Assembly: GCA_028692105.1 (NCBI GenBank)
Contig: JAQUYC010000005.1
Location: forward strand, 23,336 to 87,335
Origin: Eubacteriales bacterium
GTDB taxonomy: Bacteria; Bacillota; Clostridia; Peptostreptococcales; Anaerovoracaceae
Direction of reading: 5' to 3'
Length of the DNA stretch: 64,000 nucleotides
The notes beneath the pieces are model-generated. The model was not told where the DNA came from and ran no database searches. It worked only from the letters and a program-made list of their open reading frames with translations. The translations under genes were made by a program, and so were the position numbers. This document shows positions 19,449 through 33,900 of this stretch, piece by piece. Each line of letters opens with the position of its first letter. Position 1 is the first letter of the stretch.

Positions 19449-20153
19449 TTACAGGTAAAAGATCTCGTACTCCTGGTTCAGCAGATCGATGGTGAGCATC
19501 TTTCGATGCAAAATCTCTCCACGGCCCAGTAAAACCTTTAGTGTTTCAGCTGCTTGAATAGATGCCACCAATGCGGGACTGAACGACGGATTACCAAGTT
19601 CTTTTTCTGCTCCATTCTCTTCTTCAGGCGGATATATTTTCTGCAGAGTCCGATCTCCCGGCAGGATTGTTGAAACTTGGCCGTACCACCCTGCAATTGC
19701 CCCATGTATCAGTGGGATCATAAGTTTCTCACAATGAACCTCAAGCAGCCGACGTGTCGTAATACTGTCCAGAGCATCAACCACGATATCATGATTCTTT
19801 ATGATTTCATCACAGTTTTCTTCTCCTATAAAAGCCTGTACCGGATTAATCCTGATCTCGTGATTGACCTGCTTCATTCTTACTTCCGCAATAAATGCCT
19901 TGTTTTTACCAAGAACCTCTTCTGTTGAAAGCAGCTGGCGATTCAAATTGGTCTCGTCGAAAACATCGCCGTCCACTGCGGTGATAGTTCCAATCCCCAG
20001 CCTGCCAAGAAATTCTATCACATAACCGCCTAATCCCCCGCATCCCACGACGCATACCTTAAAGGTTTTCAGGCGATCATTTTCTTCACGGTTCAGCATA
20101 TTCATATTTTTTAAATACCGGTTTTTCATCATTCGCCTTTCATTCAATTCCAT
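19449..20153 (-). CDS. HesA/MoeB/ThiF family adenylyltransferase
   Basis: VCVVGCGGLGGYVIEFLGRLGIGTITAVDGDVFDETNLNRQLL...VVDALDSITTRRLLE. Start overlaps the preceding gene's stop. Confidence 0.92.
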   Translation of the reverse strand: MELNERRMMKNRYLKNMNMLNREENDRLKTFKVCVVGCGGLGGYVIEFLGRLGIGTITAVDGDVFDETNLNRQLLSTEEVLGKNKAFIAEVRMKQVNHEIRINPVQAFIGEENCDEIIKNHDIVVDALDSITTRRLLEVHCEKLMIPLIHGAIAGWYGQVSTILPGDRTLQKIYPPEEENGAEKELGNPSFSPALVASIQAAETLKVLLGRGEILHRKMLTIDLLNQEYEIFYL

Positions 20154-22023
20154 AGCCGCCGAGTTCCTTTAGGATTGAATGAAACTCCCTACTGCCGATA
20201 ATGTTAATAAAATCCTTGATCGCTTCTGTATCCAAGTATTTTCGAGGGATGGCAAAATCATATTCTTCAAAACCTATCGGAATAAAATCCAGCCCCATAG
20301 CATTAGCTGCAGAAAAAACACCTACTCCGGCATCGGCTGTTCCGCTTTCAACTGCCGCCGCCACTGCCATATGAGTCGTCATTTCTCTGTCGTAGCCGCA
20401 AATATTCATACTATCCAATTCGTTTTTCCTAAGTAAATAATCAGTTAAGATTCTTGTTCCTGATCCCTTTTGCCTGTTTACAAAGGTAACATCTTTTCCG
20501 GTCAAATCTGTTATATCAAAGAGCTTTTTAGGATTCCCCTTTGCAGTCATCAATCCTTGTTCACGTCTTACTCCTTTGATCAGGGCTACCTTATCATCTC
20601 CAAGATATTTATCAATGTAAGACTGATTATATTCACCTGTCAGCTCATCAAGGAGGTGTATCGGCGCTATATGCGCCTCTCCTCTCTTTAAGGCCAGGAT
20701 ACCTCCCATACTTCCCACATGAGAGGAAGATAGGGTCTGCCCCTTTCTCCTTAGAATGCTTCCGATATAATCCATAATAAGATCATGACTCCCTATCGAA
20801 ACTATGGTGTTTTCGATTGATTCTATATCGTTAATTAGTTGAATACGCGCTTCCTCTCCGGCTTCGAGGCCTTCGCTATTTTTGGGGATTACAAGGATAC
20901 CGTCGGCCTTTACCAGTGACATAGTTACGCCGGCACCTCTGTTCAGAGGAGTTGCGATAAGCTTTTCATCAACCTTGCCAAGCTTTACTCTGATGTATTC
21001 TCTGTATTTCAATGTCGAGATTATCCTTCGGGAAACGGTTGCTGTTGCCTTAATCGGCAGTTCCGGCTTTCTGTGCTGCAATACCCTGATAATGGGGTTT
21101 ACAATTTCTTCAAATACAAGAAATGCGGATCCGGGATAGCCCGGTACACCGATTACCGGTTTGTTTCCGATCATACCCAAGACTGTGGGTTTTCCGGGCT
21201 TGATTGCAATTCCATGAAGTATTAGCTCCCCAAGGTCTCTGATTAATTGAGCTGTATAGTCTCTGCTTCCCGCTGAAGAACCTGCATTGATTATAACCAT
21301 ATGGTTTCTCTCTGCAAGCTTAAGAATGGAAGACTTTAATTTTTCGTAATCATCTTCAACCGGACTGATACGCTCTGCTTTTCCTCCAAGTTCCTCAACA
21401 ATTGCCTTAAACGTCCATGAATTGGTGTCAAAGATCTTTCCTCTTTCCGGTTTATCATAATCATCAGTAATTTCATCGCCCGTTGGGATGATTCCTACCC
21501 TTACTTTCTCGTATACCAATATATCGGTAATGCCGCCGCCTAAAACCGCTCCGATATCCATTGAACGAATTAGATGGTTCTCCGGAAGAATCATCTCACC
21601 GGCCACGATGTCTTCACCGATAGGTCTTATATGTTCCCATGGCGCTGCCTGGACCATTATTTTCACCTGTTCATTGTTGAGAATTAGAACATCTTCAATC
21701 ATAATCACACAGTCATAAGGTTCCGTTATAAGGTTTCCTGTGTTGATATATTCAAAATCCTCTCCGCGGTTTAATACAATCGGGTTCACTTCATTTGCAG
21801 AAAAGGTCCTTTCTGCGATAACCATTATTCCATCCATTGCAGCGGAATTATGGTTTGGTGAGGAAACCTTTGCAATGACAGGTGCGGCCGTTACTCTTCC
21901 TATAGCTTCACGAATGTCTGCTTTTTCAGCCTTAACTGCACTTATTGAGGGCTGTAATTTTTCCAGGTAAAGAGTTACCGCTTCTTCGATGTCAGTATTG
22001 GTCAGATAAATATTTCTTTCCAT
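20140..22023 (-). CDS. MoeA-type molybdopterin biosynthesis protein fused to C-terminal substrate-binding-like (PBP-like) domain
   Basis: MoeA core NHNSAAMDGIMV...GIIPTGDEITD...NAGSSAGSRD...GIAIKPGKPTVLG...GVPGYPGSA, then IGSHDLIMDYIGSILRRKGQTLSSSHVGSMGGILALKRGEAHIAPIHLLDE...NRQKGSGTRILTDYLL. Confidence 0.92.
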   Translation of the reverse strand: MERNIYLTNTDIEEAVTLYLEKLQPSISAVKAEKADIREAIGRVTAAPVIAKVSSPNHNSAAMDGIMVIAERTFSANEVNPIVLNRGEDFEYINTGNLITEPYDCVIMIEDVLILNNEQVKIMVQAAPWEHIRPIGEDIVAGEMILPENHLIRSMDIGAVLGGGITDILVYEKVRVGIIPTGDEITDDYDKPERGKIFDTNSWTFKAIVEELGGKAERISPVEDDYEKLKSSILKLAERNHMVIINAGSSAGSRDYTAQLIRDLGELILHGIAIKPGKPTVLGMIGNKPVIGVPGYPGSAFLVFEEIVNPIIRVLQHRKPELPIKATATVSRRIISTLKYREYIRVKLGKVDEKLIATPLNRGAGVTMSLVKADGILVIPKNSEGLEAGEEARIQLINDIESIENTIVSIGSHDLIMDYIGSILRRKGQTLSSSHVGSMGGILALKRGEAHIAPIHLLDELTGEYNQSYIDKYLGDDKVALIKGVRREQGLMTAKGNPKKLFDITDLTGKDVTFVNRQKGSGTRILTDYLLRKNELDSMNICGYDREMTTHMAVAAAVESGTADAGVGVFSAANAMGLDFIPIGFEEYDFAIPRKYLDTEAIKDFINIIGSREFHSILKELGGYGIE

Positions 22024-22067
22024 ATCTATACTCCTCCGATACTATTTGCATGAGGTATTGTGTTGTG

Positions 22068-23378
22068 TTACCTGCCGATCAATGTGACCTCTGCCATAGA
22101 CCCTTCTCTTATCCCCTCTGATAAAGACGCAATCTTAACATATCCATCCGCCGTCATAAGCTGACTGATTGAGCCTGATTTGGCATGAATCGGTTCAGCA
22201 ATCCATTCCTGAACTGTTTCTCCGGCCTTACTAAAAGTACGTTTCAGTGATACGAGCTGATAGGTTTCCCGTCCTTCTCCTCCCGGGACATTTTCGGTAA
22301 TCCTCGCCGTCAGCTGAAGCGGTTCTTCATTGTTCGCAAACCAATATTGTCTTATAAAGTAATTGACAATTATATCATAAGCAACGATAGCAGCCATAGG
22401 ATGCCCGGGCAGTCCTACTACAAGTTTTTGAGCAGCAACCTCGTCCGTTCCCCTGTTTTGCCCCGTTTTTGATACTTCATCAATAATTCCAATTATTGTA
22501 GGTTTTCCCGGTTTCATGGCGATACCATGTGTGATCACCCCGGGCTGTCCCATAGAATCAATTACTTCAGCAGTAATGTCCTTATTGCCCGCAGAGCTCC
22601 CTCCCGATAAAAGCACTATATCACTCTCCGCAATAGCCTTTTTTAGTGCTTTTCTCAATGGAAGGGATATATCTGGAACTTTTTCAATATGCTCGATTAT
22701 TGCTCCAGTATGTTCAGCGAATGCTGCTATGGTATAGGAATTTATATCCCGAACTTCTCCCTGATCGGGTATTTTCGCAATATCGATTATTTCATCCCCG
22801 GTTGACAAAATCGACACGCGAGGCTTTTGAAAAACATTCAGATAGTCTTTTCCGATAGCCGCAAGCATCCCGACATCCTTGACCGTAAGCCGATGTCCTT
22901 TGCAAAACAGAAGCTGCCCTTTTTTGAAATCGTCACCCTGATTCATGATACCCGAATTGGGGGCTGTAGATTTATATACAGCAATAGTTCTATCGTCAAG
23001 CGCTTCAACATACTCGATCATCACTACCGCGTCAGCACCTTCAGGAAGCATGCCCCCTGTAGGAATATAGACTGCCTCTCCCTGTTTCATACTGATATTG
23101 CAGCTCTTTCCCATTTCAACAGAACCAACTATATCCAAAAAAACCGGTGAGCTGTCTCCGATACCGAATGTATCCTTAGCATTCACAGCATACCCATCAA
23201 CTACCGACCTGGTAAAATGCGGAATGTCCATATCTGAATAAATATTTTCTGCCAGATAACGTGATACTGCGCTTCTCAGCGGCACATTTTCAGCCGGGGC
23301 TTCGGATCCTTTCTCACCAAAATAGTTCTTCAGTTTTTCTTTGACTTCATTGACCGTATCCACTTTCAAAAGCTTCAT
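22068..23378 (-). CDS. moeA: Molybdopterin molybdotransferase MoeA
   Basis: DIPHFTRSVVDGYAV...ILSTGDEIID...LSGGSSAGNKDIT...GIAMKPGKPTIIGI...GLPGHPMAAIVAYD. Confidence 0.93.
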   Translation of the reverse strand: MKLLKVDTVNEVKEKLKNYFGEKGSEAPAENVPLRSAVSRYLAENIYSDMDIPHFTRSVVDGYAVNAKDTFGIGDSSPVFLDIVGSVEMGKSCNISMKQGEAVYIPTGGMLPEGADAVVMIEYVEALDDRTIAVYKSTAPNSGIMNQGDDFKKGQLLFCKGHRLTVKDVGMLAAIGKDYLNVFQKPRVSILSTGDEIIDIAKIPDQGEVRDINSYTIAAFAEHTGAIIEHIEKVPDISLPLRKALKKAIAESDIVLLSGGSSAGNKDITAEVIDSMGQPGVITHGIAMKPGKPTIIGIIDEVSKTGQNRGTDEVAAQKLVVGLPGHPMAAIVAYDIIVNYFIRQYWFANNEEPLQLTARITENVPGGEGRETYQLVSLKRTFSKAGETVQEWIAEPIHAKSGSISQLMTADGYVKIASLSEGIREGSMAEVTLIGR

Positions 23379-23441
23379 GGTTTAATTCTCCATCTCTATT
23401 CTGATTATAAGCGGCCTTCAAATAATCCTATATGTGATTCC

Positions 23442-24152
23442 TTATATTAACAGCTCACCGGCAACAAACCGCCTTGTTAGGTCATGCTCAGGGCTTTTCA
23501 GCATTTTCTCGCTTTCTCCGTATTCCACCACTTTGCCTTGATTTAAAAAAATCGCTTGTGCACAGACTCTTTTAGCTTGAACAAGATTGTGGGTGACCAA
23601 TATTACAGTCGTTCCCGATGTGTCATTTATTCTCTTCAACATCTTTTCTATTTCCGCCGTGGTCGAAGGATCAACATTAGCTGTAGGCTCGTCCAGCAGC
23701 AAAAGTTCCGGTTGGAATGACAAGGCTCTTGCCAGCGCGACTTTTTGTGTTTCTCCCCCTGAAAGTTTCCAGCTCTTCTGCCTGCGGAAATTTGTCAGGC
23801 CCAGTTCCCTTGTCAGCTCCTCCACCCTTGCTTCAATCCTGTCACTGCTCCAGTTCCTCAGTTTCAAAGGATACGCAATATTCTTCTCCACTGTGGTATG
23901 CATCAGGTATGGTGTTTGGAAAACCATGGTAATCTTTTTCTGCGGTGCGGTTAATTCCATTTCGTCGCCGTACATCAGTCTTCCGCTTGTTGGCTTAATC
24001 AGACCGGCAATCAGGTTTAATAAAGTGCTCTTTCCTGCCCCGTTAGGTCCAATGATTCCGCATAAATCACCTTTCTCTATCTGTAATTTCCCGATATCGA
24101 GCACCTTTCGTCCTTCATATTCTTTTGTAAGGTTTTCCATGTATAATTTCAT
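23442..24152 (-). CDS. tupC: Tungstate/molybdate ABC transporter ATP-binding protein
   Basis: GIIGPNGAGKSTLLNLIAGL Walker A, LSGGETQKVALARAL signature, LLLDEPTANVD; adjacent to TupB-like permease. Confidence 0.88.
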   Translation of the reverse strand: MKLYMENLTKEYEGRKVLDIGKLQIEKGDLCGIIGPNGAGKSTLLNLIAGLIKPTSGRLMYGDEMELTAPQKKITMVFQTPYLMHTTVEKNIAYPLKLRNWSSDRIEARVEELTRELGLTNFRRQKSWKLSGGETQKVALARALSFQPELLLLDEPTANVDPSTTAEIEKMLKRINDTSGTTVILVTHNLVQAKRVCAQAIFLNQGKVVEYGESEKMLKSPEHDLTRRFVAGELLI

Positions 24153-24161
24153 ATTTGCTCT

Positions 24162-24857
24162 CTAATTTTCGATCTTTTGCTGTACATTATATAAAAAAGT
24201 ATTGATCAGGAAAGCCATAATAAGCAGGACGATACCAACTGCAATGGCTGTACTGTAATCACCCATGCTCTTCAGCTGCGCGATGTAGGTCGTCATGACT
24301 CTGGTTTTTCCCTTTATGTTGCCTCCTACGATCATAACGGCTCCTACCTCTGAAATAGCTCTTCCCAATCCGGTTACAATGGCAGCAAGGATTCCGATCC
24401 GAAGTTCAAAAATAAGCAGCTTCAGTGACTCCATCTTTCCCGCACCTAATGTAATTGCAAGAGCCTTTACTGTAGGAGCCTTATCTCTTACGATGTTATA
24501 TGTCAATCCGGTTATAATAGGTGTCACCAGGCAGACCTGTGCGATGACCATTGCCGTAGGAGTATACGTCAAGCCCCAGGACCCTAATGGACCCCTGCGC
24601 ATTATGAGGAGAAATACCACAAGACCTGCTATAACGGGGGGCAAGCTCATAAAAGTGTATATTATACGTAATAAAGCATTTTTGAACGGAAAACTGTGTG
24701 TCCCAATCAAAGCACCTAACGGTACGCCCAAACAAGCGGAAATGATGACAGAGGATAAGGAGACCGCAAGAGAAAGTCCGACTATTTCATACAGTTGCGC
24801 ATCTAAAGTGAGCAGCAGTATAATGGCATTATGAAAACCTGTTGCGATATCTTCCAT
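24162..24857 (-). CDS. tupB: Tungstate ABC transporter permease
   Basis: Hydrophobic permease: SLAVSLSSVIISACLGVPLGALIG...MSLPPVIAGLVVFLLI...GRAISEVGAVMIVGGNIKGKTRVMTTYIA, typical of TupB. Confidence 0.88.
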   Translation of the reverse strand: MEDIATGFHNAIILLLTLDAQLYEIVGLSLAVSLSSVIISACLGVPLGALIGTHSFPFKNALLRIIYTFMSLPPVIAGLVVFLLIMRRGPLGSWGLTYTPTAMVIAQVCLVTPIITGLTYNIVRDKAPTVKALAITLGAGKMESLKLLIFELRIGILAAIVTGLGRAISEVGAVMIVGGNIKGKTRVMTTYIAQLKSMGDYSTAIAVGIVLLIMAFLINTFLYNVQQKIEN

Positions 24858-24985
24858 TACTTGTCCCTTTCCCGTTTATGGCAGAATACTACATATATGC
24901 TGTATAATTTTATCATATTCAAATCGCCTATCCAACGAAAATATGCTACTATGTATACAGCAAAAATTAATAAAGGTGAACAAAT

Positions 24986-25567
24986 ATGATAACAGATAAA
25001 CATACTATACGAAAACAAATACTGGAAAGAAGGTCTGCCCTGACGTGTGAAATACTTGACTTAGCAGGTAAGACAGCTGCAGAAAAGCTCGCTTTAACGG
25101 AAGAATACCGTAAAGCGAAAACGGTCATGCTCTATATGGACTTCCGCAATGAGGTGCCAACCGGAAATATAATCGATATGATTCGCTCTTCAGACAAAGT
25201 GCTTATCCTTCCATATACAAACAGTGCATTTATGATAATTCCCTATGAGATCCCGAATACCGGCAGTCTAAAAGATTATCTTTTTCAATCCGGATTCGGA
25301 ATATCGGAACCTGATCCGGCACTTTGCAGGGAAGCTGATCCGATGTCCATCGACCTGATCGTTATCCCCGGCAGCGTTTTTGATATTAATAATAATCGCA
25401 TCGGTTATGGCAAAGGCTGCTATGACAGATTTCTTCCAAAGCTCCACGGCAGCGCTTGCAAGATTGCTTTAACTTATGATTTTCAGGTTTTGCCCTCTGT
25501 GCCTGCCGGTCCGGCAGACGTAAAGATGGATAAGATATTGATAATCAATACCACCCGTCTTGAATAG
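24986..25567 (+). CDS. 5-formyltetrahydrofolate cyclo-ligase
   Basis: DKHTIRKQILERRSALT...DFRNEVPTGNIID...DLIVIPGSVFDINNNRIGYGKGCYDRFLPKL. Confidence 0.93.
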   Translation: MITDKHTIRKQILERRSALTCEILDLAGKTAAEKLALTEEYRKAKTVMLYMDFRNEVPTGNIIDMIRSSDKVLILPYTNSAFMIIPYEIPNTGSLKDYLFQSGFGISEPDPALCREADPMSIDLIVIPGSVFDINNNRIGYGKGCYDRFLPKLHGSACKIALTYDFQVLPSVPAGPADVKMDKILIINTTRLE

Positions 25568-25606
25568 AGGCTGCCGGAAATGTAATTATGAAAGTAAAAA
25601 ACAAAG

Positions 25607-25636
25607 CTGCCGAAAAGCCGCTAAGCCATTCGGCAG
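25607..25636. terminator. Bidirectional terminator-like hairpin between convergent cyclo-ligase and tupA genes
   Basis: CTGCCGAA-...-TTCGGCAG hairpin in the 93-bp convergent gap. Confidence 0.65.
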
Positions 25637-25659
25637 TTTATTTTATGTTTGAGGTATTT

Positions 25660-26556
25660 TTACTTTGCAGCATTCGGGGTAAACAGTGCTTTACCGTATT
25701 CTTCGACCCCGTACTCACTGATCAGTCCTTGTGTTTCTACGGATAATATCCATTTTTGAAATGCAGATGCACCCTCTGCATTTATCTGATCATTCTTTGA
25801 AGGATCTACAACGATCACGCCATATTGATTGAAAAGGTCCTTGTCACCTTCTGTTACGATATCAAGCTCTGTACCATCCGACATGTTCAGCCATGTTGCT
25901 CTGTCAGAAAGAGTATACCCCAGCATTTCATTTGTCATGGTGATTACATCGCCCATCCCTTTTCCGGATTCAACGTACCAGTCTCCTGAAGGAGTAATCC
26001 CTAATTTATCCCAAATGGAAATTTCTTTTTTATGAGTTCCTGATTCATCTGCTCTTGATATAAAGGTCACCTGATTATCGTTTATCTTCTGGAATGCAGC
26101 CTGTGCATTGTCAGGAGCAGCAGCATTTATGCCTGCAGGATCGTCTTCTGGTCCCAGGATGACATAATCATTGTACATTACGTCAAACCTCTCCGGCCCG
26201 TGTCCTGCCTCGATAAAAGCCTTTTCTGCTGCCGGGGAATGAACCAGAAGTACATCTGCTTCTCCGTTTTCACCCATCTTCATCGCTTCTCCGGACCCGA
26301 CTGCGATCACATCGACTTCGTATCCTGTTTTAGCGGTAAAATCGGGAAGGATCTCATCAAGAAGTCCACTGTCCTGTGTACTTGTTGTAGTCGCAAGGAT
26401 GACCGTACCTATTATTTCAGCAGGGCCTTCTTCTTCCGGTGCAGCGGGCTCATTCTTTGAACAGCCGCTGAAAAGTGACAGAACTAAAACTAAAACCAAA
26501 GCCAATGCCAAAGCAAGCATTTTTTTGGATTTCAACATTTTACTTTTCCTCCACAC
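25660..26556 (-). CDS. tupA: Tungstate ABC transporter substrate-binding protein
   Basis: Lipoprotein-like signal (LVLSLFSGCSKNE) and TupA hallmark ATTTSTQDSGLLDEILPDFTAKTGYEVDVIAVGSGEAMKMGENGEADVLLVHSP. Confidence 0.92.
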   Translation of the reverse strand: MWRKSKMLKSKKMLALALALVLVLVLSLFSGCSKNEPAAPEEEGPAEIIGTVILATTTSTQDSGLLDEILPDFTAKTGYEVDVIAVGSGEAMKMGENGEADVLLVHSPAAEKAFIEAGHGPERFDVMYNDYVILGPEDDPAGINAAAPDNAQAAFQKINDNQVTFISRADESGTHKKEISIWDKLGITPSGDWYVESGKGMGDVITMTNEMLGYTLSDRATWLNMSDGTELDIVTEGDKDLFNQYGVIVVDPSKNDQINAEGASAFQKWILSVETQGLISEYGVEEYGKALFTPNAAK

Positions 26557-26593: not shown

Positions 26594-26622
26594 AAAAAAA
26601 TCCTTTGCATTGCAAAGGATTT
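26594..26622 (-). terminator. Intrinsic terminator between riboswitch and tupA
   Basis: Reverse strand AATCCTTTGCA-ATGCAAAGGATTTTTTT; hairpin followed by a T-run. Confidence 0.8.
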
Positions 26623-26624
26623 CA

Positions 26625-26797: not shown

Positions 26798-28309
26798 TTA
26801 GCTCGTCAGGTCCCTGAATATTTCCTCCACCGTTTCCATTTTATTAGATCGGTAGGCATTGCTGCCTGCGAACACGAGCCCATTTTCGATATCACCTTTT
26901 GCAGCATTAAGAAGTGCCTGCGTTATACAATAAGGAGCTTCCTCAGCTTTGCACGGTATCAGGCAGCGATTGCATTTTACCGGTGGGATCCTACCCTTTT
27001 CCACCCTTTCAACAAAAGGAGTTTTTATGGCCCTTCCCGGCATGCCTACCGGGCTTTTAATCACAGCCATATCCTCTTTTGACGCATTCAAGTAAGCTTC
27101 TTTGAATTTCGGATGGACATCGCACTCCTCAGTTGTCACAAACCGTGTCCCCATCTGTACACCGTCAGCCCCGTAAGATAATGCCTTCTGCACATCCTCT
27201 TTAGTGTAGATTCCTCCCGCGACAATAAGAGGACAGCCGGGTAGATCTTCGATCTCCTCTTTGATTTCCATGATCGTATCGTAAAAATGCTCTTGTGCCT
27301 CCTCCAGCTGCTCTTCTTTAAACCCTAAATGTCCGCCTGCCATCGGGCCCTCATAAATAATCGCATCCGGAACACGATTATATTTTTTTGACCAGTTTTT
27401 AATTATCAGTCCTGCTGCTCTTGCCGATGAAACAATGGGTACGATCTTGACCTTGCTGTTCTTCACGTCTCCCGGCAGCGACATCGGTAAGCCGGCTCCT
27501 GAAATGATCATATCAACGCCTGCCTCAACTGCTGCCTCTACAAACTCATCGTAATTTCTGCTGGCATACATTATGTTTACTGCGATCAATCCCTTGTTCG
27601 GGGCATCTTTTATCGCCTCTTTTGCTTCACGAATATTCCTCTTCAAGGCGCGTATATTGGCATCCTTCGGTTTGCTGTAGAAATCCGGTTCCAGAAAACC
27701 AATCTGGGCGGCAGAAATCACTCCAACGCCTCCATATTTGGCAACGGCAGCTGAAAGTCTGGATAAGGAAACACCGATCCCCATTCCTCCTTGAAAGATC
27801 GGAACAGGAATTGTAACATCACCCAAAGTCAGAGGCATCAGTTTCAGCGGAGCATCTCCCTTAATCGTTCTGACTCTTTGTCTTTTGAAAAAATCCCTGA
27901 TTGTTTCAAGAGACTGGAGCAATACAGTTTGTTCCTCCTCATTGAGATCGGCAATCACGTCGTTAATCATATTCCAATGAAATTCCTCATGCTCCCGCAC
28001 CGCTTCTGCGCCTTCTTCTGTAAGCTCAATTTTCACTATCCTGCGGTCCTCCGGGATGCGATGCCGATTGACGTATTTTTTATCTACCAGCTTATTGATT
28101 GCGGCCGTCAAAGTACTTACGTTGATCTTTAAGCTTGCTGCGACCTGTGTCATAGTTTTGGCTTTGCCTTTCCCTATGGCTGTTAGAGTATGAACTTCCG
28201 TAATTGAAAGATTGTGCCGTGATGAATTCTTAATGGCATCCTCCTCAACCTTCAGAACATTGTTAAACAGGCTTACCAATATATCATTTAATTTTTTTGT
28301 TGTTTCCAT
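26798..28309 (-). CDS. MarR-family HTH fused to nitronate monooxygenase/FabK-like flavoprotein
   Basis: N-terminal MarR domain (LSITEVHTLTAIGKGKAKTMTQVAASLKINVSTLTAAINKLVDKKYVNRHRIPEDRRIVKIELTEEG) continuous with TIM-barrel NMO domain (PIFQGGMGIGVS...GGHLGF...IVAGGIYTKEDVQKALSYGADGVQMGTRFVTTEEC). Start at METTKK, not the ORF-track start. Confidence 0.9.
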   Translation of the reverse strand: METTKKLNDILVSLFNNVLKVEEDAIKNSSRHNLSITEVHTLTAIGKGKAKTMTQVAASLKINVSTLTAAINKLVDKKYVNRHRIPEDRRIVKIELTEEGAEAVREHEEFHWNMINDVIADLNEEEQTVLLQSLETIRDFFKRQRVRTIKGDAPLKLMPLTLGDVTIPVPIFQGGMGIGVSLSRLSAAVAKYGGVGVISAAQIGFLEPDFYSKPKDANIRALKRNIREAKEAIKDAPNKGLIAVNIMYASRNYDEFVEAAVEAGVDMIISGAGLPMSLPGDVKNSKVKIVPIVSSARAAGLIIKNWSKKYNRVPDAIIYEGPMAGGHLGFKEEQLEEAQEHFYDTIMEIKEEIEDLPGCPLIVAGGIYTKEDVQKALSYGADGVQMGTRFVTTEECDVHPKFKEAYLNASKEDMAVIKSPVGMPGRAIKTPFVERVEKGRIPPVKCNRCLIPCKAEEAPYCITQALLNAAKGDIENGLVFAGSNAYRSNKMETVEEIFRDLTS

Positions 28310-28322
28310 GAACTTTCTCCTA

Positions 28323-28748
28323 TTAACCAATCGCAAACAGGATCTCGCACTGACAAGCAATTTTATCTCCCAGATATGCTGTGGCTTTCCCGTTACCCGC
28401 CTTTGCCCTGATACGATCCAGGACAACTTCAAGGCGGAGTGTGTCCCCGGGTACTACTTTCTGGCGGAATTTTGCATTTTTAATGCCGCCAAAATATGCA
28501 ATTTTTCCACGATGCTCCTTCATGGACAAAATTGCTACAGCTCCGGCTTGAGCCAGGGATTCTATTATAAGAACGCCGGGCATTACTTTTTCCTGTGGGA
28601 AATGTCCCTGGAAATAGTATTCATCCTCGCGAACATATTTCATGGCAACAATACGCTTTCCCTCTTCTATTTCAACAACTTCGTCTATTAGTAGAAAAGG
28701 ATCTCTATGCGGTATTATTTCTTTGATCTGTTCTCTGTTTAAAATCAC
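28323..28748 (-). CDS. fabZ: 3-hydroxyacyl-ACP dehydratase FabZ
   Basis: IIPHRDPFLLIDEVVEIEEGKRIVAMKYVREDEYYFQGHFPQEKVMPGVLIIESLAQAG. Inferred GTG start overlapping the fabF stop (GTGA). Confidence 0.94.
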   Translation of the reverse strand: MILNREQIKEIIPHRDPFLLIDEVVEIEEGKRIVAMKYVREDEYYFQGHFPQEKVMPGVLIIESLAQAGAVAILSMKEHRGKIAYFGGIKNAKFRQKVVPGDTLRLEVVLDRIRAKAGNGKATAYLGDKIACQCEILFAIG

Positions 28749-29977
28749 TTTTGCGCCCCCTTTAACAGCAGACATCCATTGTGACCGCCGAATCCGAGAG
28801 AATTTGACATTGCATAGTTTAGGGCCTGCTTTCTTGCTGTACCCGGAACATAATCCAAATCAAGCTCCTCATCAGGAACTAAAAGATTTATGGTCGGCGG
28901 AATTACTCCATCCAGCATAGCGTTGATGCAAACAATTGCTTCCACCACACCGGCTGCGCCCAGGAGATGCCCCGTCATGCTCTTGGTGGAACTGACCGGG
29001 ATTTTGTATGCAGCATCGCCGAACACTGTCTTTATAGCTCTTGTCTCAAACAAATCGTTGTATGGAGTTCCTGTCCCGTGTGCATTTATATAAGAAACCT
29101 CTTCCGGCCTAATACCTGCTTCCTGAATGGCGAGTTCCATCGCCCTTGCGGCACCGGTACCTTCCGGTGACGGCATCGTAATATGATAAGCATCGCATGT
29201 CGTGCCGTAACCTGCAACTTCGGCATATATTTTCGCACCCCTTGCAATGGCATGCTCATATTCTTCGAGTATCACAATGCCTGAACCTTCTCCCATGACA
29301 AAGCCGTCTCTCTCCTTGTCAAATGGCGTTGAGCAACGGTTTGGGTCCTCTCTTGTAGATAAAGCTGTCATATTTGCAAACCCGGAAAAGCAAACCGGTG
29401 CGAAAGGGGCTTCCGATGCCCCCGCTATCACCGCATCAGTATATCCATGTTTAATTGATCGATATGCTTCACCAATTGCATGGGTGCCTGTTGCACATGC
29501 TGTAACCATCCCCAGGCAGCTGCCTGTTGCCTTGCATGCTATAGCTATATTGCCCGCAAGAATATTTCCGATAACAGAAGTGACCAGAAATGGGGATACC
29601 CTTTTGATACCCTTTTCCATAGCCTTTTGCACTTCACTTTCCAAGGTCATAACCCCACCAATACCGGAACCAACCAATACACTCAACTTTTCTGCATCTA
29701 TATTTTCACCGCTTACAAGACCGCTGTCCGCCATGGCTTCCAATGCTGCCGTTACTCCATATTGAGAATAAAGGTCGCTTCTCCTCGCTTCTTTTTTGTC
29801 ATGAAATACGAAATCCTTTACCTCTGCGCCGTTTTTCGCTTTTTGTTCCTCCGGATCAAAATGGGTAATCCTTGCAATTCCATTTTTACCTGCTTTGATT
29901 CCCTCCCAGAAATCTTTCACATTATTCCCCAGGGGCGTTACCGCTCCCATTCCTGTAATAACTACCCTTCTGTTCAT
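28745..29977 (-). CDS. fabF: Beta-ketoacyl-ACP synthase II
   Basis: RRVVITGMGAVTPLGNNVKDFWEGIKAGKNGI...VTACATGTHAIGEAYR...NAHGTGTPYNDLFET...STKSMTGHLLGAAG. Confidence 0.96.
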   Translation of the reverse strand: MNRRVVITGMGAVTPLGNNVKDFWEGIKAGKNGIARITHFDPEEQKAKNGAEVKDFVFHDKKEARRSDLYSQYGVTAALEAMADSGLVSGENIDAEKLSVLVGSGIGGVMTLESEVQKAMEKGIKRVSPFLVTSVIGNILAGNIAIACKATGSCLGMVTACATGTHAIGEAYRSIKHGYTDAVIAGASEAPFAPVCFSGFANMTALSTREDPNRCSTPFDKERDGFVMGEGSGIVILEEYEHAIARGAKIYAEVAGYGTTCDAYHITMPSPEGTGAARAMELAIQEAGIRPEEVSYINAHGTGTPYNDLFETRAIKTVFGDAAYKIPVSSTKSMTGHLLGAAGVVEAIVCINAMLDGVIPPTINLLVPDEELDLDYVPGTARKQALNYAMSNSLGFGGHNGCLLLKGAQK

Positions 29978-29994: not shown

Positions 29995-30744
29995 TCAGAT
30001 GGACATTCCGCCATCTACTCCTATAACCTGCCCTGTAATATATGCGGCTTGATCCGAAGCCAAAAATACTACTGCATTTGCAACATCAGAAGTTTTTCCG
30101 GCTCGTCCGAGGCTTATGGCATTTGTCATTGATTTTTTTTGTTCATCTGTTAATATCTCCGTCATATCCGTTTCTATAAAACCGGGGGCTACCGCATTGA
30201 CAGTTATGCCTCTTTTCCCAAGCTCTTTAGCCGCGGACAATGTCATTCCTATGACTCCGGCCTTTGATGCACTATAATTAACCTGCCCTGCATTTCCACG
30301 AATTCCGACGATAGAGGAAATATTAATAATTCTACCATGCTTCTGCTTGATCATAAACGGTGCCACTGCACGAAGAAAATAAAAACTGCCGTTCAAGTTT
30401 GCCTGAATAACATCGTTAAAGTCGGATGCCGTCATTCTCATTATTAATTTATCCTTAGTAATTCCTGCATTGTTCACCAGTATATCTATCTTGCCAAAAA
30501 TTTCGACTGCCAGTTTGGCTGCGGCTTCACCATGGATAGGATCTGAAATATCTCCTTTGATCACTTCCACACGTGTTCCGTATTGTTTCAGCTGTTCTGC
30601 TGTTTTTTTTGCTGCTTCTTCATTGCTGCGATAACAAAGAAGTACATCAGCTCCCTGTCTGCAGAATTCCTCGGCGATTGCTCCGCCGATTCCTCTGACA
30701 CCGCCGGTTATCACTGCGCTTTTTCCTTTAAGCATCTTAGTCAC
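29995..30744 (-). CDS. fabG: 3-oxoacyl-ACP reductase FabG
   Basis: AVITGGVRGIGGAIAEEF...VNNAGITKDKLIMRM...NISSIVGIRGNAGQVNYSASKAGVIGMT. Confidence 0.95.
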   Translation of the reverse strand: MTKMLKGKSAVITGGVRGIGGAIAEEFCRQGADVLLCYRSNEEAAKKTAEQLKQYGTRVEVIKGDISDPIHGEAAAKLAVEIFGKIDILVNNAGITKDKLIMRMTASDFNDVIQANLNGSFYFLRAVAPFMIKQKHGRIINISSIVGIRGNAGQVNYSASKAGVIGMTLSAAKELGKRGITVNAVAPGFIETDMTEILTDEQKKSMTNAISLGRAGKTSDVANAVVFLASDQAAYITGQVIGVDGGMSI

Positions 30745-30771: not shown

Positions 30772-31776
30772 TTATTTGGTTTCTTCTTCGGAGATTAAAT
30801 TTTTTATAGTATCCATTGTCTCCATCAATGTATCATTATCTTCAATATTCATCACAATCAGTTCGCTGTTGATTTTTCGTGCAAGACCGGATAAAGTTTT
30901 TCCCGGCCCGAACTCAATAAATATACTGATTCCATCTGCATTCATATTTTCTATTGTTTCCTGCCAATAAACAGGTCTTTCAGCTTGTTTTGCCATTACT
31001 TGTGCCAGCCACTGATTATCCTCACCAATCTGCCCTTCCATGATATCTTTGCCCGTTACGTTGGAATAGGTCTTTACAGTTGGTTTTTTCAAATCTGCAG
31101 CAAGCAATATTTTTAGCAGTTTCGGAACAGCCGGCTTCATCATTGATGAATGGAATGCGGTTCCAACACTCAGCGGAACGGTCTTGATGCCTCCAACCTC
31201 TTTAGATTTTAATAAAAATCGCTGCTGTGCATCCTTATCTCCGGCTACGACCGTCTGAGCGGGTGAATTAAAATTTACACCCTCAAGGATGCCATCTTCC
31301 CTTGCAGCTTCTACACATTCAAGAATGACTTTTCGTTCTCCGAAAGCGGCGATCATACCGCCAATATTCTCTCCCTGTGCATTTTTTCCGGCATCACTCA
31401 TCCAGACACCTCTGTTTCTGACGATTTTTAGGCCTGTTTCAAAGCTTTGGATCGCTCCTCCTGCTGTGAGAGCCGCATATTCTCCCAGGCTGAATCCTGC
31501 CATTCCTTTTATTTCAACTCTGCTCAAAATATCTTCATCAAGACCGGAAAGCTCTTTTAAAAAAGCCTCATATGCCGCCATGGTCACCGTATACACGCAA
31601 GGCTGTGTGATATTGGTCTGCCTTAGCAGTTCCTTTGATCCTTCAAAGCACCATTGCTGTATGTCCTGGCCTGCCAGATCAAAGACCTTTTTCGCCTCTT
31701 TTGAATTGTCATAAAGACTTTTACCCATTCCTGGGTATTGAGCCCCTTGACCTGCAAATAATAGCCCTACTTTCAT
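30772..31776 (-). CDS. fabD: ACP S-malonyltransferase
   Basis: MKVGLLFAGQGAQYPGMGKSLYD...MAGFSLGEYAALTAGG...FHSSMMKPA. Confidence 0.95.
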   Translation of the reverse strand: MKVGLLFAGQGAQYPGMGKSLYDNSKEAKKVFDLAGQDIQQWCFEGSKELLRQTNITQPCVYTVTMAAYEAFLKELSGLDEDILSRVEIKGMAGFSLGEYAALTAGGAIQSFETGLKIVRNRGVWMSDAGKNAQGENIGGMIAAFGERKVILECVEAAREDGILEGVNFNSPAQTVVAGDKDAQQRFLLKSKEVGGIKTVPLSVGTAFHSSMMKPAVPKLLKILLAADLKKPTVKTYSNVTGKDIMEGQIGEDNQWLAQVMAKQAERPVYWQETIENMNADGISIFIEFGPGKTLSGLARKINSELIVMNIEDNDTLMETMDTIKNLISEEETK

Positions 31777-32686
31777 AGATCTCCTCTGCCTCCTCAAACA
31801 TTTCTACTATCATTTCCCTTGCTGTCTGTTCCTTCTTTACAAGACCGGCAATTTGGCCTGACATTACAGATCCATTCACCACATCACCGTCCTTGACTGC
31901 TGCCCGCAGTGCTCCTGTTCCTATTTTTTCTATCTCTGAAATATCTGCGTTTCTTTTTTCCAAAATCAGAATATCTCTTGCCAGTTTATTTTTTAGCACT
32001 CTTACCGGATGTCCTGTACTGCGCCCGGTAGCCACAGTATCTGAATCCTTTGCTTTTAAGATCATATCCTTGTAATTCTGTGATACGGTGCATTCTTTCG
32101 CAACAAGAAAACGTGTTCCGACTTGAACACCGGATGCTCCGAGCATAAATGCTGCAGCAATTCCCCGACCGTCAGCAATGCCCCCTGCTGCTATAACAGG
32201 GATGTTTACCGCATCTACCACTTGAGGAACAAGTGCCATAGTTGTGGCTTCCCCGATGTGTCCGCCTCCCTCCTGGCCTTCAGCAATGACTGCATCCGCG
32301 CCGGCACGCTCCACTCTGATTGCAAGTGCTACCGATGCGATGACGGGAATCACTTTTATACTGTTGCTTTTTAACTTTGTTATATATTTACCGGGGTTCC
32401 CCGCTCCTGTAGTAACTACAGGAACATGTTCCTCGCAAATAACATCAATGATTGCGTCCGCATGTGGATTCAGCAGCATCACATTTACGCCGAAAGGCTT
32501 ATCAGTCATTTCTCTCGTCTTACGGATCTCGCTTCTCACCCAGTCTGCTTCTGCATTTCCGCTTGCTATTATACCTAAACCTCCGGCATTGCTAACTGCA
32601 GATGCCAGATATGCATCCGCGATCCATGCCATTGCCCCCTGTATAATGGGATATTCCGTTCCGAGCAGTCCACAAATATTAACCAT
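31721..32686 (-). CDS. fabK: Enoyl-ACP reductase FabK-type flavoprotein
   Basis: TEYPIIQGAMAWIADAYLASAVSNAGGLGIIASG...EGQEGGGHIGEATTMALVPQVVDAVNIPVIAAGGIADGRGIAAAFMLGASGVQVGTRFL. Confidence 0.93.
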   Translation of the reverse strand: MVNICGLLGTEYPIIQGAMAWIADAYLASAVSNAGGLGIIASGNAEADWVRSEIRKTREMTDKPFGVNVMLLNPHADAIIDVICEEHVPVVTTGAGNPGKYITKLKSNSIKVIPVIASVALAIRVERAGADAVIAEGQEGGGHIGEATTMALVPQVVDAVNIPVIAAGGIADGRGIAAAFMLGASGVQVGTRFLVAKECTVSQNYKDMILKAKDSDTVATGRSTGHPVRVLKNKLARDILILEKRNADISEIEKIGTGALRAAVKDGDVVNGSVMSGQIAGLVKKEQTAREMIVEMFEEAEEIYESRAIICRSRGSIPRNG

Positions 32687-32736: not shown

Positions 32737-33702
32737 CTACACTGCTTCAAATAGTATCGCTCCGGCACTCAGTCCGCCGCCGAATCCGACCATCATGATT
32801 ATATCCCCCGAATTAACTTTTCCGCTTTTCATTAAATCTGCCAATGCCATTGGAATGCTTGCCGCTGATACATTACCAGTAGTCTGGATGTTCACCTGAA
32901 ATTTTTCAATGGGCTGTTTCATGCGCTGCGCCGCAGATTGAATGATTCTCATATTTGCCTGATGAGGTACATAATATTTTACATCATTTGCTGTGATCCC
33001 CGCCTTTTGCAGTACAATGTCCATGGCTTCGCCGATGGCACCTACTGCGAATCTGAAAACTTGGGGCCCGTTCATATGAAGGAACTGCTCTTTCGGTTCA
33101 TCATCCGCAAACGGAGTTTTCAGGTATTGCATGTCTGCGGTAAGACTATTTGATATATCATCATAGTTCTTTATGAAACTACTTATAATACCGGTTTTGT
33201 CATCTTTAAGCTCTAAGACAGCGCTTCCGGCTCCGTCGCCGAAAATAATACAGGTCCCTCTGTCCTCCCAGTTCGTGATTCTGGAGAGACGCTCCACTCC
33301 GATTACCAATGCACGCTTTATCCCATGTGTCTTCATAAGAGCTTCTGCATTCCAAATTCCATATATAAATCCGCTGCACGCTGCATTTAAATCGTAGGCA
33401 ATCGCATTCTCTAAGTTCATAGCCCTTTTCACCAGTGCTCCCATTGACGGTACCAGCATATCCGGTGATACGGTAGCTACAATGACCAACCCGATAGAGT
33501 TTCTGTCCAAATCCCCCATAGCTTCTTTCGCCGAATTTACAGCAAGATCCAATCCTGTTTCTTTTGTTGCTATATGCCTTGATTCGATTCCTGTACGGTC
33601 TATGATCCATTGATTATCCGTTTCAACCATTTTTGAAAGATGTGTGTTATCAACTTTCAATTCCGGCAATGACTTGCCGGTTCCTATAATAACTACTCCC
33701 AA
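32737..33702 (-). CDS. fabH: Beta-ketoacyl-ACP synthase III
   Basis: VVIIGTGKSLPELKVDNTHLSKMVETDNQWIIDRTGIESRHIA...AACSGFIYGIWNAEAL...YYVPHQANMRIIQSAAQRM. TTG start after GGAGGATTAAC. Confidence 0.94.
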   Translation of the reverse strand: MGVVIIGTGKSLPELKVDNTHLSKMVETDNQWIIDRTGIESRHIATKETGLDLAVNSAKEAMGDLDRNSIGLVIVATVSPDMLVPSMGALVKRAMNLENAIAYDLNAACSGFIYGIWNAEALMKTHGIKRALVIGVERLSRITNWEDRGTCIIFGDGAGSAVLELKDDKTGIISSFIKNYDDISNSLTADMQYLKTPFADDEPKEQFLHMNGPQVFRFAVGAIGEAMDIVLQKAGITANDVKYYVPHQANMRIIQSAAQRMKQPIEKFQVNIQTTGNVSAASIPMALADLMKSGKVNSGDIIMMVGFGGGLSAGAILFEAV

Positions 33703-33844
33703 GTTAATCCTCCTCAGTTTCAGTTTCTTTATACACATTCTGCTTGGCACTTTAGTGCCGCTGATTTCATCATATTAATTTATTATGACATATTAGAGCC
33801 CATAAATGGATGATGCAAAATGCCAAAAAATAACAATAAAATTT

Positions 33845-33900
33845 ATTTTGATAGTCAAACTATTTGACTGTATTATAAATTTTACTGATATACATGTCAA
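33845..33900 (-). promoter_or_regulatory. fabH operon promoter with FabT-like operator
   Basis: Reverse strand TTGACA-17 nt-TATAAT (33900-33895 and 33877-33872), then AGTCAAATAGTTTGACT palindrome and AGTTTGACTATCAAAAT (33861-33845). Confidence 0.75.

What the first reader, a model, noticed from the sequence alone, without database searches (positions are those of the whole stretch)
26798..28309. MarR HTH domain fused in one ORF to a nitronate-monooxygenase/FabK-like flavoprotein, last gene of the fab operon
The ORF reads without interruption from a full MarR domain (METTKK...LETIRDFFKRQ) into a TIM-barrel flavoprotein (LGDVTIPVPIFQGGMGIG...), with a Cys-rich CNRCLIPCKAEEAPYC segment near the C-terminus. 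Operon-linked regulators of fab genes in Firmicutes can be MarR-type (FabT). A fusion to a flavoenzyme suggests a regulator that directly couples fatty-acid gene control to FMN redox state, an acyl/nitronate substrate or thiol state.
Basis: partly seen in the sequence, partly recalled or inferred. Interest (0 to 1): 0.75.

Follow-up and report, generated by a model that had tools for sequence, protein, structure and literature searches.

The report
Fatty-acid repressor fused to double-bond enzyme
In one family of anaerobic bacteria, the repressor of the fatty-acid-making genes is fused in one protein to an enzyme of the kind that puts the double bond into fatty acids, and in many relatives the enzyme half has lost its catalytic residues but is kept, as if it had become a sensor.

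Summary
It is not FabK (the true FabK is 32686..31721) but a FabX, the FMN/[4Fe-4S] dehydrogenase/isomerase that makes cis-3-decenoyl-ACP in Helicobacter pylori; catalytic His and all four cluster cysteines are present. The N-terminal half is FabT-like. Its presumed box (TTTGACTATCAAA) sits just after a perfect -35/-10 in front of fabH and occurs once in the genome.

The same fusion closes the fab operon in 42 related genomes of the family (Anaerovoracaceae). None was found outside it. Two sister genomes carry the pair adjacent but unfused.

All 19 unfused FabX compared keep the catalytic His and cluster cysteines; 27 of 43 fused ones have lost the His, the cysteines or FMN-site residues. Yet the domain stays in frame, under purifying selection, with its ACP-docking basic residues kept.

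Best reading: a repressor-enzyme that couples fab control to acyl-ACP occupancy of the FabX tunnel; catalytic here, a sensor in degenerate relatives. Sensing is inferred, not shown. Redox sensing is weakly supported. Stand-alone fabX genes also carry such boxes across Clostridia.

The parts
26798..28309 (-). fabT-fabX fusion gene, 503 aa, last gene of the fab operon
   Evidence: open ORF with SD and ATG; families; 42 other fused genomes
27884..28309 (-). FabT-like MarR domain (residues 1-142)
   Evidence: NF050133 FabT 126.8 bits, E 6.8e-37, residues 8-142 (below the curated cut-off of 200); solved FabT 6jbx E 1.5e-23
26801..27847 (-). FabX domain (residues 155-503): FMN TIM barrel plus [4Fe-4S] subdomain
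   Evidence: H. pylori FabX best by sequence (262 bits) and by fold (TM up to 0.85 on target)
27317..27352 (-). active-site motif EGPMAGGHLGFK holding the His that aligns with FabX H182
   Evidence: alignment to H. pylori FabX
26927..26974 (-). CNRCLIPCKAEEAPYC: the four cysteines that align with FabX C300/C304/C308/C320 ([4Fe-4S] ligands)
   Evidence: alignment; ligand identity from PMC8626469
33847..33859 (.). presumed operator, TTTGACTATCAAA read on the minus strand, just downstream of the -10, with a further half site between the two
   Evidence: only perfect TTTGAYWRTCAAA in the genome; same box in front of the fab operon in 26 loci
33872..33900 (-). promoter TTGACA-17-TATAAT of the fab operon (12 of 12)
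32737..33750 (-). fabH (real start probably downstream of the listed GTG)
   Evidence: conserved operon order
31721..32686 (-). fabK, the true enoyl-ACP reductase
   Evidence: TIGR03151 502 bits, over the cut-off 453
30772..31797 (-). fabD
29995..30744 (-). fabG
28745..29977 (-). fabF
28323..28775 (-). fabZ, directly upstream of the fusion (13 bp)
26597..26623 (-). intrinsic terminator after the fusion
   Evidence: 12-bp stem plus T run; folding z -4.8

Best explanation
The gene encodes the organism's only FabT-type repressor and only FabX-type enzyme as one polypeptide. The MarR half binds the palindrome that overlaps the start of fab transcription (33847-33859) and represses the operon, itself included. 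The FabX half, intact in this species, acts on medium-chain acyl-ACP (decanoyl- or trans-2-decenoyl-ACP) to make cis-3-decenoyl-ACP, the branch point to unsaturated fatty acids. Because acyl-ACP enters the FabX tunnel, occupancy of that half is proposed to tune operator binding of the repressor half: a trigger enzyme. In about two thirds of the fused relatives the enzyme half has lost residues it needs for catalysis but is kept, which suggests that it has become an acyl-ACP sensing domain there. Shown by sequence: the fusion, the domain identities, the box, the operon, the grouping of the fused FabX halves, the loss of catalytic residues and the retention of docking residues. Inferred: repression, catalysis, acyl-ACP sensing.
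For: Domain identity; fold. Only FabT/FabX-like gene besides FabK in the genome; only one box in the genome, at fabH, directly after a 12/12 promoter. Box in front of the operon in 26 fused or adjacent loci; 26 of 27 perfect boxes in about 0.5 Mb lie there. Box and recognition helix differ together in one clade: TTTTANNNTAAAA with GALTTAM in place of STLTxAI. Fusion last in the fab operon wherever the operon is held. Unfused FabX 19/19 with His and cysteines; fused 16/43 intact, 24 lost His182, 18 lost cysteines. In degenerate members basic residues at ACP-docking positions 152, 159, 164 are kept at 100, 93, 96%, against a mean of 72% for positions conserved in unfused FabX and 11% for His182. 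dN/dS of the degenerate FabX half 0.05-0.20. A degenerate member is still predicted to fold as FabX (pLDDT 92.5).
Against: No activity, DNA binding or ligand binding was measured. H. pylori FabX needs O2 (PMC8626469) and these are anaerobes, so an unknown electron acceptor or an isomerase-only reaction must be assumed. Purifying selection on degenerate FabX halves is weaker than on intact ones (0.05-0.20 against 0.02-0.03; several dS values saturated). The MarR half scores under NCBI's FabT cut-off (126.8 against 200 bits). Retained basic residues could serve folding or something other than ACP docking. With all FabT rows in, the MarR tree does not recover the fused rows as one clade (single clade not rejected, p-AU 0.12).
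Confidence: 0.6

Rival explanations
1. The fusion only fixes stoichiometry. Two neighbouring operon genes, fabT and fabX, were joined by loss of a stop. Each half works alone; the gain is tighter coupling of repressor and enzyme amounts (an extreme of the 'perfectly coupled' fabT operons), and no signal passes between the halves.
For: The sister lineages G035 and G192 carry fabZ-fabT-fabX adjacent and unfused in the same place. fabT autoregulation inside the operon is the rule in Lactobacillales (PMC13046290). FabX itself stands behind such boxes across Clostridia.
Against: It does not explain why the FabX half is kept in frame and under purifying selection after its catalytic parts are gone, nor why only fused FabX degenerates.
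Confidence: 0.25
2. A redox or thiol sensor: FMN or [4Fe-4S] state in the flavoprotein half switches DNA binding.
For: FMN-contact residues and all four Fe-S cysteines are intact in the window protein.
Against: 18 fused members lack cluster cysteines and 7 carry an acidic residue at the FMN-contact threonine T243, yet the repressor half and a box at the operon remain. No redox part is common to all members.
Confidence: 0.07
3. In degenerate lineages the FabX half is a decaying passenger kept only because truncation would unfold the repressor.
For: Selection is relaxed about 2- to 8-fold relative to intact members. One genome (G225) has a shortened fusion without the fab operon, and G001 has a stand-alone FabT close to the fused ones.
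Against: 41 of the 43 fusions are full length and open (one of the other two is cut by a contig end); dN/dS well below 1; docking positions kept above background; confident FabX fold.
Confidence: 0.08

Closest known systems
FabX of Helicobacter pylori (PDB 7e1q, 9lt5; PMC8626469)
   Same: Closest solved relative of residues 156-502 by sequence and fold; catalytic His, four [4Fe-4S] cysteines, FMN contacts and basic ACP-docking residues conserved
   Different: Stand-alone in H. pylori, which lacks FabK and needs O2; here fused to a repressor in an anaerobe that also has FabK
FabT of Streptococcus, Enterococcus and Lactococcus
   Same: MarR fold, FabT best family match, palindromic box at the fab promoter, encoded inside the operon it is predicted to control
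   Different: Under NCBI's FabT cut-off; last and not first gene of the operon; carries a C-terminal enzyme
FabX homologue of Fusobacterium nucleatum (C4N14_08920; PMC11091888)
   Same: FabX in an anaerobe that also uses FabK; cluster cysteines kept
   Different: Not reported as fused; no repressor domain described
FabK (TIGR03151)
   Same: NMO-family FMN barrel acting on acyl-ACP; encoded in the same operon
   Different: FabX has an Fe-S subdomain where FabK binds NAD(P)H (PMC8626469); 146.6 bits against a cut-off of 453
Trigger enzymes such as PutA or BirA (from general knowledge, not tested here)
   Same: An enzyme that also represses its own pathway genes in one polypeptide
   Different: No case that joins a MarR repressor to a fatty-acid-synthesis enzyme was found in the held literature

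Membership tests
FabX dehydrogenase/isomerase | catalytic His182 | tested here: met
   EGPMAGGH in the window; lost in 24 of 43 fused proteins
FabX dehydrogenase/isomerase | four [4Fe-4S] cysteines C300/C304/C308/C320 | tested here: met
   all four in the window
FabX dehydrogenase/isomerase | FMN-contact residues (G22-G25, N99, E175, G220-221, Q240, T243) | tested here: met
   all conserved in the window
FabX dehydrogenase/isomerase | basic ACP-docking helix (K152, K159, R164) | tested here: met
   R, K, K in the window
FabX dehydrogenase/isomerase | fold closest to FabX and not FabK | tested here: met
   FabX ranks 1-5, TM 0.82-0.85 on target
FabX dehydrogenase/isomerase | makes cis-3-decenoyl-ACP | not testable with these tools
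   needs an enzyme assay or fabA complementation
FabT | NCBIfam NF050133 over its curated cut-off (200 bits) | tested here: not met
   126.8 bits, E 6.8e-37, though it is the best MarR family by far; hence called FabT-like
FabT | palindromic box at the fab promoter | tested here: met
   33847-33859, unique in the genome, conserved in relatives; that FabT binds it is inferred
FabT | encoded in the fab operon | tested here: met
   yes, but last and not first
FabT | acyl-ACP as co-repressor | not testable with these tools
   needs EMSA
FabK | TIGR03151 over its cut-off (453 bits) | tested here: not met
   146.6 bits
Nitronate monooxygenase (enzyme) | closest to characterised nitronate monooxygenases | tested here: not met
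   Pfam NMO family only; FabX and FabK rank above the nitronate monooxygenases

The most novel reading that the evidence does not exclude
A fatty-acid enzyme that was joined to its own repressor and then turned into its ligand-sensing domain: the intact fusions are bifunctional repressor-enzymes that read acyl-ACP at the unsaturated-fatty-acid branch point, and in at least two derived lineages the enzyme has become a pure acyl-ACP sensor. Living genomes would hold every stage: separate, adjacent, fused and active, fused and dead.
Probability: 0.5. Interest if true: 0.82.

Novelty: new variant of a known kind. Interest (0 to 1): 0.72.

Why it matters
Both halves belong to known kinds, but no FabT-FabX fusion or enzyme-bearing FabT was found in the held literature. 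The family lays out, in living genomes, the path from separate genes to an adjacent pair, an active-looking fusion and a catalytically degraded one, so enzyme-to-sensor evolution can be tested directly; a cultured strain with an intact fusion (Anaerovorax odorimutans DSM 5092) and one with a degraded fusion (strain SL.3.17) both exist. The wider result also bears on an old question. The enzyme that makes the double bond in Clostridia was still 'novel and unknown' in 2009 (PMC2700279). Here FabX genes sit in or beside the fab operon, often with FabT-type boxes, in many Clostridia and Lachnospiraceae, which makes FabX a strong and testable candidate there.

Tried and rejected
FabK or nitronate monooxygenase identity: rejected. 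Assembly artefact: rejected, 42 other fused genomes. Internal start giving a free FabX: no enrichment of SD plus start codon at the junction, 8 of 43 against 16% in control windows. Fusion outside the family: none among the genomes drawn at order, class and phylum level. FabA or FabN as other unsaturated-fatty-acid enzymes: most fused genomes searched have a single FabA/FabZ-family gene; G080, G324, G164 and G059 have a second one, the window genome a weak second hit (54 bits) and G225 none; FabM (crotonase family) was not searched. Literature: no paper on a FabT-FabX or MarR-NMO fusion.

Full report
OBSERVATION. The minus-strand ORF 28309..26798 encodes 503 aa from ATG (AGGAG upstream) to TAA without interruption. 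It closes the operon fabH (33750..32737), fabK (32686..31721), fabD, fabG, fabF, fabZ, fusion. The operon starts at a 12/12 promoter (TTGACA-17-TATAAT, 33900..33872) and ends at a 12-bp-stem terminator (26623..26597; folding z -4.8). The window's genome is 1.84 Mb in 51 contigs, 97.7% complete. Named relatives with the fusion are Sinanaerobacter, Anaerovorax, Clostridium aminobutyricum and 'Clostridiales Family XIII' MAGs, which I read as Anaerovoracaceae.

IDENTITY OF THE HALVES. N-terminal half: NCBIfam FabT NF050133, E 6.8e-37 over residues 8-142, but 126.8 bits against a curated cut-off of 200, so 'FabT-like'; the solved FabT 6jbx matches at 1.5e-23. C-terminal half: Pfam NMO, but the closest solved protein by far is H. 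pylori FabX, 262 bits against 95 for the best FabK. TIGR03151 (FabK) gives 146.6 against a cut-off of 453, while the operon's own FabK scores 502. AlphaFold2 on 54 window and locus sequences gives pLDDT 93.4; Foldseek ranks FabX 1-5. Read against PMC8626469, the window keeps His182, Cys300/304/308/320, the FMN contacts and basic residues at 152, 159 and 164. FabX makes cis-3-decenoyl-ACP from decanoyl-ACP, using O2 in H. pylori.

OPERATOR. TTTGACTATCAAA, with a further half site, lies at 33847-33859, right behind the -10. TTTGAYWRTCAAA occurs once in the whole genome, there. The genome holds no other FabT-like or FabX-like gene except FabK. In fused and adjacent relatives, 26 loci carry the perfect TTTGANNNTCAAA box at the fab promoter, and 26 of the 27 perfect boxes in those 0.5 Mb lie there; these loci were picked because they carry the box, so the number shows position and not frequency. 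In the termite-gut Family XIII clade the perfect box is absent and TTTTANNNTAAAA stands in its place in most members, together with a changed recognition helix, GALTTAM for STLTxAI. This is what a working, co-evolving DNA-binding half would show. That the box is a FabT site follows from the FabT match and the known palindromic FabT sites (PMC9083066); binding was not tested.

DISTRIBUTION AND ORIGIN. All 350 held genomes of the family were searched: 118 have a match at 1e-25 or better, and 42 besides the window's were read as in-frame fusions. Wherever the operon is held, the order is (H)-K-D-G-F-Z-[T-X]. No fusion was seen outside the family in samples of 297 (order), 391 (class) and 398 (phylum) genomes, which overlap and include family members; the outside-family matches listed cover the FabX half only. 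In the FabX tree the 43 fused rows form one group (92/98), and G035 and G192, in which fabT and fabX are adjacent but unfused after fabZ, are their sister (45 rows together 100/100). The MarR tree is less clear: with all rows two changes are needed, one clade not rejected (p-AU 0.12); without G001's lone FabT and six other stand-alone rows the fused rows are one clade (SH-aLRT 98). A single fusion with a later loss in G001 is the simplest reading, not proven.

LOSS OF CATALYTIC PARTS. All 19 unfused FabX compared, H. pylori included, have His182 and four cysteines. Of the 43 fused, 24 lost His182, 18 lost cluster cysteines (one more is cut by a contig end), and 7 carry Glu/Asp at the FMN-contact threonine T243; 16, the window among them, keep everything tested. 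His loss needs at least four changes on a tree built without those columns. Different clades lost different parts: the g76 clade lost His and Fe-S but kept the G220-G221 and T/S243 positions; the termite clade kept the cysteines but changed G23, G220 and T243. What both kept is the basic docking patch: positions 152/159/164 are K/R in 100/93/96% of the 27 degenerate members, against a mean of 72% for all positions conserved in unfused FabX. dN/dS of the FabX half is 0.02-0.03 in three intact pairs and 0.05-0.20 in degenerate pairs; several dS values are saturated, so this is rough. A degenerate member is still predicted with confidence to fold as FabX, though its alignment holds intact relatives. 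No degenerate genome showed a second, stand-alone FabX, whereas two intact ones (G083, G084) do have one.

MECHANISM. Shown by sequence: one polypeptide, sole FabT-like and sole FabX of the genome, one box, its own operon. Inferred: it represses its operon, catalyses the unsaturated-fatty-acid branch point here, and lets acyl-ACP in the FabX tunnel tune repression. The case for sensing rests on the degenerate relatives: a dead enzyme half that is kept under selection with its ACP-docking residues is best explained by a regulatory role. FabT already answers to acyl-ACP (PMC9083066, PMC13046290), so the fusion would add a second, chain-length-specific reading. In an anaerobe the FabX reaction needs another electron acceptor than O2, or runs only as the isomerase; this is open.

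WIDER CONTEXT. FabX is common in the order (195 of 297 genomes with a match at 1e-40) and lies beside fabT or in the fab operon in many Clostridium, Lachnospiraceae and an Enterococcus. FabT-type boxes stand within about 70 bp before many stand-alone fabX genes, including C. carboxidivorans, C. drakei, C. luticellarii, Tepidibacter and Blautia schinkii. Clostridium acetobutylicum was reported to use a 'novel and unknown' enzyme for the double bond (PMC2700279); FabX homologues in anaerobes were noted in PMC8626469 and PMC11091888, but I found no paper that makes this regulatory and operon link (only open-access papers could be searched).

Noticed in passing
L128:9055, L134:9016, L138:9016, L141:3684, L143:2298, L149:9001, L154:9016, L156:8986, L158:9001, L179:2924, L186:9001: Stand-alone fabX genes across Clostridia, Lachnospiraceae and an Enterococcus carry FabT-type boxes in front of them and often adjoin fabT: FabX is a candidate for the missing clostridial unsaturated-fatty-acid enzyme.
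   Followed up: partly
L066, L068, L073, L075, L076, L077, L093, upstream of fabK: In termite-gut Family XIII relatives the presumed operator reads TTTTANNNTAAAA and the recognition helix differs (GALTTAM): apparent co-evolution of repressor and site.
   Followed up: partly
L094 (G083) and L095 (G084): Two genomes with an intact fusion also carry a separate, intact stand-alone FabX.
   Followed up: no
L086:8992-10413 (G225): A shortened, catalytically degraded fusion sits away from any fab gene in a genome where no FabA/FabZ-family gene was found (97% complete): fatty acid synthesis may be lost there.
   Followed up: no
window 19449-26556, minus strand: Downstream neighbours look like a tungstate or molybdate ABC transporter and molybdenum-cofactor genes (two MoeA-like, one MoeB/ThiF-like), named from the ORF translations only.
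   Followed up: no
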